Assembly (NCBI GenBank): GCA_032622095.1
Contig: CP136061.1
Coordinates: forward strand, 37,887,797 to 37,951,796
Direction: 5' to 3'
Source: Siphonodentalium dalli
Taxonomy: Eukaryota; Mollusca; Scaphopoda; Gadilida; Siphonodentaliidae
Length of the DNA stretch: 64,000 nt
The translations under genes and the position numbers were made by a program. The notes beneath the pieces are model-generated. The model ran no database searches. It was not told the DNA's origin and saw only the letters and a program-made list of their open reading frames with translations. The number at the start of each line of letters is the position of its first letter. Within the stretch, counting starts at the first letter, position 1. Shown piece after piece: positions 38,394-41,300 of this stretch.

Positions 38394-41300
38394 GTACGGC
38401 TCAACGCATATTTTAATCATATATGTATATAATGAAAAGAAAACGAGTTGGAATTCTACTTTTAAAAAGTAAAGTACGTCGTCCAGGATTGTTTAATACC
38501 GTCCAGGGTGAATTCCTGTGAGTATTGTCGATGTTTCCTTCGACGTATACCAACTGGTGAAATCGGCAGAGATAAACTGGTTTAATAAGAAGCATACCCA
38601 TGAAATCTAAAATAACCAATGACGGTAACAAAAATGTCACAATTGAGAAAATAATCAGGTTAACTCATAGACAACATTAGTTTTGTTCTGAACACATATA
38701 GAGTTGTCAACTGAACGATGTAATTTAATGTGATCTATATTTCTCCAGCCCATACACATTTTAGCACAGGCAGCCCGTGCGAGATAATGTGTGAGATTTC
38801 CCTGCCTCACATCACATGTGACCAGCTGTCTCACCCTACCCAAGTGACTACTTTACCTATTTAATTTAGAACCGCAACTATCTTAACAAGCGATCGTCAT
38901 GCCTTGAGTCAACTTAAATAATGGCGACTACAGTTACGCTTCGTGTCACATAGGGACGAACTCGTCAACTCCAACTGGTTAAAATAGAGATTCTTCAACA
39001 CAAGCTTATTTGCAAACGCAGAGTTGGATCAAATTCACTACAAATGTCTATATGTGTGAACATATTCGATCAAACGGCAGGCAAAATTTCCTAAGTAAAG
39101 CAGCGTGTGAAGCGAAACGGACGGACATTGTATATTTCGCAACATGTACACATATACCCTCCACAAATGACGAATGAAATACTTTCACTTTCGAAAAATT
39201 GTCATCGTTTATGGTATATCAACATGTTCGCTTGTCTAATGGTACCGACATAGGGATATTTCCCATGGCAAGCAGGGTTTGTCTATTTGTAAAGACTTCA
39301 TATCCAATACGCGCATTTCTCGGGATTCATGCACGATGCAGTTGTGACGAATTCATGTCGCTTTCACACGAACCATGTATATAGTATTAACCCTGCTCGC
39401 GTTTTTCCAGTATATACCTTTGGTATTTACCGAAAGTATCGGCGATTATCACGAATATGGATTTATCCCCATGCAGATGTACCGTTAGGAATATTCTGAA
39501 ATGTGCCAGATATTTGTATAAAGCACAACATCGGAATGAGGCTATTGGGTTGGGAGAAAAATGATCCATCATGACCTGGGGTGTGGGTATGGACAAATCT
39601 CACCCTCGGGGCAAGACATTTGGACTGGCCCAAACATCTGGCCCCTCGGGTGAGATTTGCCCATCCCACATCCCAGGTCATGATGGATAATATTAATTTT
39701 ATTGCAATGCTTACATGATTTGCAAAGAATAGGAACTCTTTTGACCCCATCCCCGACTTCGTAATAGTTCTTTCATTATGACCCTATGATATCAATCTTA
39801 CCGATAAATGAAGCATTTTGTATTGGGTTGTATGTTAAAGTCGGGGATCTGGGTGTAAATTTGGTTATAGAAAGAGAGAATGCTTCGGTGTAAACAAGCA
39901 GTTCACAAACTGGTTTAACTCTGAATAAAGATTTGTTTTCGTTTCTTCTGAAATGATAACGATACTCTCTTTTATTTATTGTGAAAAGGTGGTCATCTTC
40001 TGTTTTGTTGCATGCGGTATTGGCTATTTACATATATACTATATACCCCCCATTCCTTAACATATGCAATTGTATATATGCTCGTATATACTATTGTTTT
40101 TACAACTATTATTACACAGTACACGGAAAGTGGACTAACTGGGAGGATTCGGAATGCCTTGTGACGTGTGGCCATGGATATTACATGCGCACTCGAACTT
40201 GCACCAACCCACCACCATATAATGGGGGAGACCAGTGCCAGGGAAAGTCGATGCAGACCGCGCCATGCTGGAAGCCAAGCTGTCCAGGTAAGTCACTGTG
40301 TTCGATCACACCAAGCTGTCCAGGTGAGTCCGAAGCACACAATAGAGTTATCTCCCACGATCAATCACACCGGGTAAGTCCGAAGCACACAATAGAGTTA
40401 TCTCCCACGCTGTGTCGATCAAACAGATGTCCAGGTGAGTCAACATACGCGGCATTGTTCACTTCCTCGATATGCTCGATCAAACCAAGCTGTCCGGGTG
40501 AGTCCACACGATAGAGATATGTCCATCGCTGTGCTCGATCAAATGAATCCACAAGTTAAATGTTTAATAAAGATAGTTTGATTAAATATGCTTGACTATC
40601 ATTTCTGAAATTGACAGACATTAGATTCAGATGTGACGCTCGCTCTGTGAACGCTCATCATTCGAACCCAGGCCTATTTGGCGGACACATCTGCACCACG
40701 GATATTTCGCCCTCCTCTTTCTCATTATAATATTTAGCCTCTTATTTAAAATGCCCCCAGGACACACTCCCATTTATCATGTCATCCATACATGTAGTTT
40801 TCAGTTAGCAGTTTCCTAATACAATATGACAACATAATATACAAAACGTGTGGTAATTTAATTTAATATAGAAATACAAAAAATGCCCTGTTACGCCTAT
40901 ATATATTTTTATTGTACCCCATGTCCACTAAGCGGACTACATTGCGGGGCTGTCATTAATCATTAGAGTGCAACATTCCATCCATATTTGGATATTCATT
41001 CCAGAAACGAAGGCAACTGATTGCTTCGACGTCATTCTACAATCAGGAAGGAAGGAGAGTGGGGTACACAGGGTGTACGTCCCGGGTGTCACGCGTGGAA
41101 TCGACGTATTCTGTGATCAGAATACGACCGGGGGAAGCTGGTTGGTAAGTAGAGTGCGCGATATTGACAATGCGTAATCGTATATTCCGACGCTAACTTG
41201 GGAACACTCGTCCTGTTAAATTGGTGAGAGTATCATTATACACAGCATTATGTGGATAATATAAACACGCTGTATGAACATGCACATCGCATTCGATATT

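What the first reader, a model, noticed from the sequence alone, without database searches (positions are those of the whole stretch)
40288..40514. Tandemly duplicated 5' splice sites that could lengthen the TSP1 exon in frame
The exon 2 end and its donor are copied repeatedly, giving five GTRAGT sites. The frame stays open past all five. Donors at +36, +147 and +210 nt keep the frame and would add 12, 49 or 70 residues carrying extra CPG or PSCPG motifs with added Cys between TSP1 and the fibrinogen domain. The +86 site would shift the frame. This could be a source of isoform or allele diversity in a recognition protein.
Basis: seen in the sequence. Interest (0 to 1): 0.8.

Follow-up and report, generated by a model that had tools for sequence, protein, structure and literature searches.

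The report
Tandem splice donors after TSP1 exon
In an apparently intact animal gene for a thrombospondin/fibrinogen-domain protein, the boundary between one exon and its intron has been copied in tandem, giving five near-perfect splice donors in a row that could lengthen the protein or spoil the message, an already known kind of arrangement whose use in this gene is untested.

Summary
GTRAGT donors lie at 40288, +36, +86, +147 and +210, and the TSP1 frame is open to TAG at 40512. The array is a degenerate tandem duplication of the exon 2/intron 2 boundary, well beyond chance (self-alignment 70 against at most 27 in 200 shuffles). By predicted U1 pairing the five donors are among the six best of 3,870 GT sites. 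The inferred gene has six exons in consistent phase, 363 aa: hydrophobic start, TSP1, full fibrinogen C domain. Donors +36, +147 and +210 give 375, 412 and 433 aa with 2, 4 and 6 extra cysteines; +86 gives a stop in exon 4, probably NMD. Evidence that the extensions are selected is weak: the open frame is borderline (2-7% by chance), codon usage favours no frame, and donors are not significantly more conserved than the rest of the repeat. Human IFI6, ABCA7 and CBS have repeats that carry or span an exon donor. Most likely 40288 dominates with minor use of the others. Donor usage and copy-number variation could not be tested.

The parts
38111..38393 (+). Exon 1 (candidate): ATG at 38111 (or 38117), hydrophobic N-terminus, Ser/Thr-rich stretch; donor CAG|GTACGG, phase 1
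   Evidence: chosen from 5 candidate rows by position and phase; no transcript
40120..40287 (+). Exon 2, complete TSP1 domain (6 Cys), phase 1-1
   Evidence: Pfam TSP_1 6.2e-9; PDB thrombospondin-1 1.5e-19; frame
40275..40543 (+). Whole degenerate tandem array: last 13 nt of exon 2 plus intron, five units (36, 50, 61, 63 and about 59 nt; the end of the last is set by eye)
40288..40293 (+). Donor D0, CAG|GTAAGT, taken as the canonical donor of exon 2
   Evidence: predicted U1 pairing -12.1 kcal/mol, third of 3,870 GT sites
40324..40329 (+). Donor D1 (+36), CAG|GTGAGT, in frame, +12 aa, +2 Cys
   Evidence: -12.2 kcal/mol, tied first
40374..40379 (+). Donor D2 (+86), CGG|GTAAGT, out of frame; stop at 46758 in exon 4
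   Evidence: -11.4 kcal/mol, sixth
40435..40440 (+). Donor D3 (+147), CAG|GTGAGT, in frame, +49 aa, +4 Cys
   Evidence: -12.2 kcal/mol, tied first
40498..40503 (+). Donor D4 (+210), CGG|GTGAGT, in frame, +70 aa, +6 Cys
   Evidence: -11.5 kcal/mol, tied fourth with a site at 52878
40512..40514 (+). First in-frame stop (TAG) after the array
40566..40571 (+). AATAAA just past the array (possible intronic poly(A) signal; about 0.7 expected in an intron of 717 nt)
41005..41144 (+). Exon 3, start of the fibrinogen C domain, phase 1 to 0
   Evidence: Pfam Fibrinogen_C 2e-5
46757..46853 (+). Exon 4, fibrinogen C domain
49373..49537 (+). Exon 5, fibrinogen C domain
57592..57830 (+). Exon 6, end of the fibrinogen C domain and stop codon

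Best explanation
A segment spanning the end of exon 2 (last 13 nt of the TSP1 exon) and up to about 50 nt of intron 2 was duplicated in tandem several times and then changed by indels and substitutions, leaving five near-consensus 5' splice sites 36-63 nt apart. Shown here: the array, predicted donor strengths, phases and coding consequences of the gene model. Inferred: U1 can bind all five sites, donor 40288 remains the main one, and downstream copies are used at a low level. Copies +36, +147 and +210 would then give longer linkers between TSP1 and the fibrinogen domain; copy +86 would give a message with a stop in exon 4 and probable NMD. The extensions are more likely tolerated by-products than a selected isoform system.
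For: Repeat beyond chance. Five of the six best U1-pairing GT sites of 3,870 examined lie here, stronger than the gene model's four other donors at -7.3 to -10.7 kcal/mol. Phases agree across all five introns of the model, and each isoform's fate follows from them. TSP1 is complete with D0. Codon usage favours no frame of the array and the donors show no significant extra conservation. In the analogous ABCA7 repeat, whose first GT is the exon 18 donor, retention of one 25-bp unit was at 2 +/- 1% (my reading of 'respectively' in section 21 of PMC5954066; that form is an NMD target there, so the level is a minimum). In human IFI6 two downstream repeat units serve as donors, with three mRNA species (PMC4526556, passage).
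Against: No RNA evidence. In DOK7 intron 4 the intron-proximal of two competing donors is preferred, though it is also the stronger one there (PMC5585400, passages); a proximity rule would favour D4 and the longest form over D0. The open frame is borderline, 2-7%, and the three in-frame extensions add 2, 4 and 6 cysteines, which would also suit real protein use. The selection tests have little power.
Confidence: 0.6

Rival explanations
1. Neutral intronic minisatellite debris: only donor 40288 is used; exon definition or other context silences the copies.
For: A larger, more regular minisatellite (27 nt x 13) sits in the next intron at 41411-41760, so arrays form in this gene. Codon usage in the array shows no frame preference. 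With D0 the exon is 168 nt, with D4 378 nt.
Against: The copies are consensus donors predicted about as strong as D0, the first only 36 nt away; the open frame is borderline rather than clearly chance (2-7%).
Confidence: 0.25
2. Selected isoform generator: donor choice sets the length and cysteine content of the TSP1-fibrinogen linker, and copy number varies among alleles of an immune lectin.
For: Three of four extra donors in frame; frame open to 14 nt past the start of the last donor; even cysteine increments; the gaps in my hand alignment of the D3 copy sum to 3 nt. Variable repeats in a prawn lectin family alter immune activity (PMC7536079, abstract, section 8).
Against: Chance values of 2-7% for the frame and about 11% for three of four in frame; no codon signal; the identical 33-nt block shared by units 1 and 2 is read in two different frames.
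Confidence: 0.1
3. Guard against early polyadenylation: the array of U1 sites suppresses the AATAAA at 40566 (telescripting), or its failure yields a short secreted TSP1-only protein ending at 40512.
For: AATAAA 54 nt after the in-frame stop and 68 nt after the start of D4.
Against: AATAAA occurs 64 times on the + strand of 64 kb, so about 0.7 is expected in this 717-nt intron.
Confidence: 0.05

Closest known systems
Human IFI6 (6-16) minisatellite providing multiple splice donor sites (Turri et al. 1995)
   Same: Two downstream repeat units are used as donors, giving three mRNA species (passage in PMC4526556; title of Turri et al. in its reference list)
   Different: Unit there about 12 bp in many copies (recalled; the paper is not held). 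Here 36-63 nt, five degenerate copies, in a TSP1-fibrinogen gene of an unidentified organism
Human ABCA7 intron 18 VNTR (25 bp; about 12 to 427 units)
   Same: First GT of the repeat is the exon 18 donor; use of a donor one unit downstream retains 25 bp (PMC5954066, passages, section 21)
   Different: Unit lies in the intron and its retention shifts the frame; here the unit includes 13 nt of exon and three of four extra donors keep the frame
Human CBS 31-bp VNTR, c.1444_1467+7 (16 to 21 units)
   Same: By its name the unit spans an exon end and donor, 24 exonic + 7 intronic nt (PMC2630376, passages)
   Different: Length of unit invariable, population polymorphism shown there; use of several donors was not seen in the passages; here irregular, five copies, polymorphism unknown
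Variable internal tandem repeats at exon-intron boundaries in human segmental duplications
   Same: Repeats at boundaries alter splicing (PMC2812944, passages including part of the abstract)
   Different: Those form novel introns in primate-specific paralogs
Fibrinogen-related proteins and ficolin-like lectins
   Same: Fibrinogen C domain; best PDB matches FIBCD1, ficolin-2, with techylectin-5A close behind
   Different: A TSP1 domain upstream; no IgSF or collagen family found by Pfam

Membership tests
Exon-boundary minisatellite with multiple splice donors (IFI6/ABCA7 kind) | Tandem repeat spanning or abutting an exon's donor | tested here: met
   the unit includes the last 13 nt of exon 2
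Exon-boundary minisatellite with multiple splice donors (IFI6/ABCA7 kind) | Each unit carries a consensus donor | tested here: met
   5 of 5 units: 9-bp predicted pairing with the U1 5' end, all within the six best of 3,870 sites; a possible sixth remnant after 40543, seen by eye, has no GTRAGT
Exon-boundary minisatellite with multiple splice donors (IFI6/ABCA7 kind) | More than one donor used in mRNA | not testable with these tools
   no RNA data; no genome held
Exon-boundary minisatellite with multiple splice donors (IFI6/ABCA7 kind) | Copy-number polymorphism | not testable with these tools
   one sequence only; no population data
Fibrinogen-related domain protein (FReD) | Complete fibrinogen C domain | tested here: met
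   PF00147 4.6e-68, profile positions 3-220 of 221, on the inferred 363-aa model
FREP in the mollusc sense | One or two IgSF domains with the fibrinogen domain | tested here: not met
   Pfam finds only Fibrinogen_C and TSP1-type families in the 363-aa model; definition from the start of the abstract of PMC7588048 (listing)
Dscam-like docking/selector splicing (scheme recalled) | A shared RNA element pairing with the alternative sites beyond chance | tested here: not met
   exon 2 (40120-40262) against each of 5 donors, 500 shuffles: p 0.16 to 0.79; only this stretch was tested

The most novel reading that the evidence does not exclude
A splicing ruler in an invertebrate fibrinogen-domain lectin: donor choice in a boundary minisatellite sets linker length in two-cysteine steps, one out-of-frame copy acts as an NMD off-switch, and array copy number varies between individuals.
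Probability: 0.08. Interest if true: 0.75.

Novelty: new member of a known kind. Interest (0 to 1): 0.4.

Why it matters
Five almost equal, near-perfect donors within 210 nt, in one gene with known reading frames, make a natural test of how splicing chooses among competing 5' splice sites (first, strongest or closest to the acceptor). If several are used, it would also be a simple route from DNA repeat slippage to protein length variation in a lectin-like gene. If only the first is used, it shows how well context silences strong donors.

Tried and rejected
Chance occurrence of the donors: rejected. Selection on the open frame: borderline, 2-7%. Codon usage in the array: frame scores 0.03, -0.05, 0.03, no preference, and the minus-strand frames score as high or higher (0.02, 0.10, 0.04). 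The array scored above all but 2.6% of 693 stretches of this gene's introns, but those are AT-rich (introns 36-38% G+C against 49% in the array); against 464 GC-matched stretches, 17.5% reach its score. The line labelled GC-matched was no such control. With exon 2 left out of training the frame scores are 0.01, -0.05, 0.06; of three pieces between in-frame donors, frame 0 was highest in one. The method is weak: leaving each exon out, the true frame was highest in 5 of 6 exons, often by little, and lowest in exon 6.

Donor conservation against the rest of the core: 1 of 9 against 8 of 27 variable columns, p = 0.40, on three hand-aligned copies (D1, D3, D4); D2 was dropped because its left arm is disrupted, D0 because only its left part is repeat. 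RNA pairing between exon 2 and donors: an inverted repeat (40130-40144 with 40493-40507, 15 nt, 80%) prompted the test; p 0.16-0.79. Donor accessibility: all five 9-mers are predicted less accessible than the lower quartile of the region, but without a GC-matched control I draw nothing from it.

Relatives: TSP1 in viral contigs, 1 pattern match and 0 relatives; the last fibrinogen exon in genome contigs, 27 pattern matches and 0 relatives; the 363-aa model in phages, no match. By their descriptions these collections hold no animal genomes, so this says nothing about animals. A second TSP1 or fibrinogen gene in the window: tblastn with exons 2 and 3 gave no other hit better than E 0.10; Pfam scans covered only the + strand, 30300-60900. 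A strict search for exon 1 printed nothing; a looser one looked at 97 donors between 8000 and 40100 and gave 5 rows: I took 38394 (two rows, two start codons) and dropped two rows at 20704 and a 17-aa one at 38163.

Literature: in the ten searches, whose listings were capped, I saw no title or passage that describes a donor array in a TSP1-fibrinogen gene. Also looked at without use: passages of PMC2572611, PMC8724738, PMC7588048, PMC11312191, PMC3618361.

Full report
What is there. The exon carrying the TSP1 domain runs from 40120 to 40287. It encodes a complete TSP1 with six cysteines (Pfam TSP_1 6.2e-9; best PDB match thrombospondin-1, 1.5e-19). It ends in CAG|GTAAGT at 40288. The end of the exon (CCAAGCTGTCCAG) and the donor recur downstream, with GTRAGT at +36, +86, +147 and +210. 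The TSP1 frame stays open to TAG at 40512.

Is it more than chance? Yes for the repeat. The best off-diagonal self-alignment of 40270-40560 scores 70, against a mean of 17 and a maximum of 27 in 200 dinucleotide shuffles. In 5,000 shuffles of 40287-40511 none had more than three GTRAGT. The five donors are among the six best of 3,870 GT sites examined on the + strand (3,874 exist) when ranked by predicted pairing with the U1 5' end (-11.4 to -12.2 kcal/mol). The U1 letters are recalled and assumed conserved in animals. The gene model's other four donors score -7.3 to -10.7.

How it arose. The units are 36, 50, 61, 63 and about 59 nt (the end of the last is set by eye). Pairwise alignments show one motif: exon end, donor, a variable middle, and a tail like CTGTGCTCGATCAAA that leads into the next exon-end copy. 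Units 1 and 2 share an identical 33-nt block, so part of the array looks young; unit 3's middle is strongly diverged. By eye, the D0 unit lacks the middle and the copy before D2 has lost about 9 nt of the exon end. I read this as repeated tandem duplication across the boundary followed by indels (inference). The next intron holds a second, more regular minisatellite, 27 nt x 13 at 41411-41760.

The host gene. Pfam scans of the + strand from 30300 to 60900 found fibrinogen C pieces downstream, and a search for first exons found a candidate at 38111-38393. The six exons 38111-38393, 40120-40287, 41005-41144, 46757-46853, 49373-49537 and 57592-57830 join with consistent phases into a 363-aa protein. 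It has a hydrophobic start, a Ser/Thr-rich stretch, TSP1 (1.8e-8) and a nearly full-length fibrinogen C match (4.6e-68, profile 3-220 of 221). The fibrinogen domain is closest in the PDB to FIBCD1 (2.8e-60) and ficolin-2, with techylectin-5A close behind. The gene looks intact and lectin-like; its function and the species are not known, and the model has no transcript behind it. It is not a FREP in the mollusc sense, which has IgSF domains (definition from the listing).

What each donor would do. D0: 363 aa. +36: 375 aa, two more cysteines. +147: 412 aa, four more. +210: 433 aa, six more. +86: frameshift with a stop at 46758 in exon 4, with two exon junctions downstream, so NMD is expected by the usual rule (recalled).

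Is it selected? Support is weak. The frame stays open in 7.4% of shuffles of the array, in 2.1% and 2.4% of 225-nt stretches of the two strands and in 15 of 464 GC-matched stretches (3.2%), so it is borderline. Three of four extra donors in frame has a chance of about 11%. Codon usage scored 0.03, -0.05 and 0.03 in the three frames. The frame-0 score beats all but 2.6% of this gene's intron stretches, but 17.5% of GC-matched stretches reach it, and leave-one-out shows that the test is weak (5 of 6 exons right). Donor columns vary less than other core columns (1 of 9 against 8 of 27), not significantly (p = 0.40, three hand-aligned copies). An inverted repeat between exon 2 and D4 suggested a pairing scheme like Dscam's; tested against shuffles it was not supported. 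In favour of selection are the even cysteine steps and the gaps in the D3 copy that sum to three (hand alignment).

Which donor would be used? Known cases point to the first. In ABCA7, where a 25-bp repeat begins with the exon 18 donor, use of a donor one unit further was at 2 +/- 1% (my reading of 'respectively', section 21 of PMC5954066; that form is an NMD target, so the level is a minimum). In IFI6 two downstream repeat units are used as donors, giving three mRNAs (passage in PMC4526556; the original paper is not held). Against this, in DOK7 intron 4 the intron-proximal of two competing donors is preferred, though it is also the stronger there (PMC5585400, passages). Here the five are nearly equal, so the outcome cannot be predicted with confidence. 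I put 0.6 on D0 as the main donor with low use of the others, and 0.25 on D0 only.

Known or new? Repeats with an exon donor in each unit are known in human genes (IFI6, ABCA7), and the CBS 31-bp VNTR spans an exon end by its name. This is a new member of that kind in another gene family, notable because the unit includes coding sequence, the donors are near-perfect, and three of four extra donors keep the frame. Polymorphism and use remain untested.

Noticed in passing
window 44582-44672 (+): U2 snRNA match (Rfam RF00004, 51.9 bits, the only match at gathering threshold in the window); about the first 45 nt match the consensus, then most of the RNA is missing, so probably a truncated U2 pseudogene in intron 3 of this gene.
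   Followed up: partly
window 41411-41760: 27-nt minisatellite, 13 copies, 86% matches, in intron 3 of the same gene.
   Followed up: no
window 43795-43857 and 45408-45491: Two short tandem arrays whose 21-nt units look by eye like reverse complements of each other, on either side of the U2-like sequence, as if an inverted element lay there.
   Followed up: no
window 21206-21481: 132-nt tandem repeat, 2.1 copies, 97% matches.
   Followed up: no
window 57592-57830: The fibrinogen-domain loop aligned with the calcium-site region of FIBCD1 (site recalled) is shorter and altered (alignment), so calcium binding may differ.
   Followed up: no
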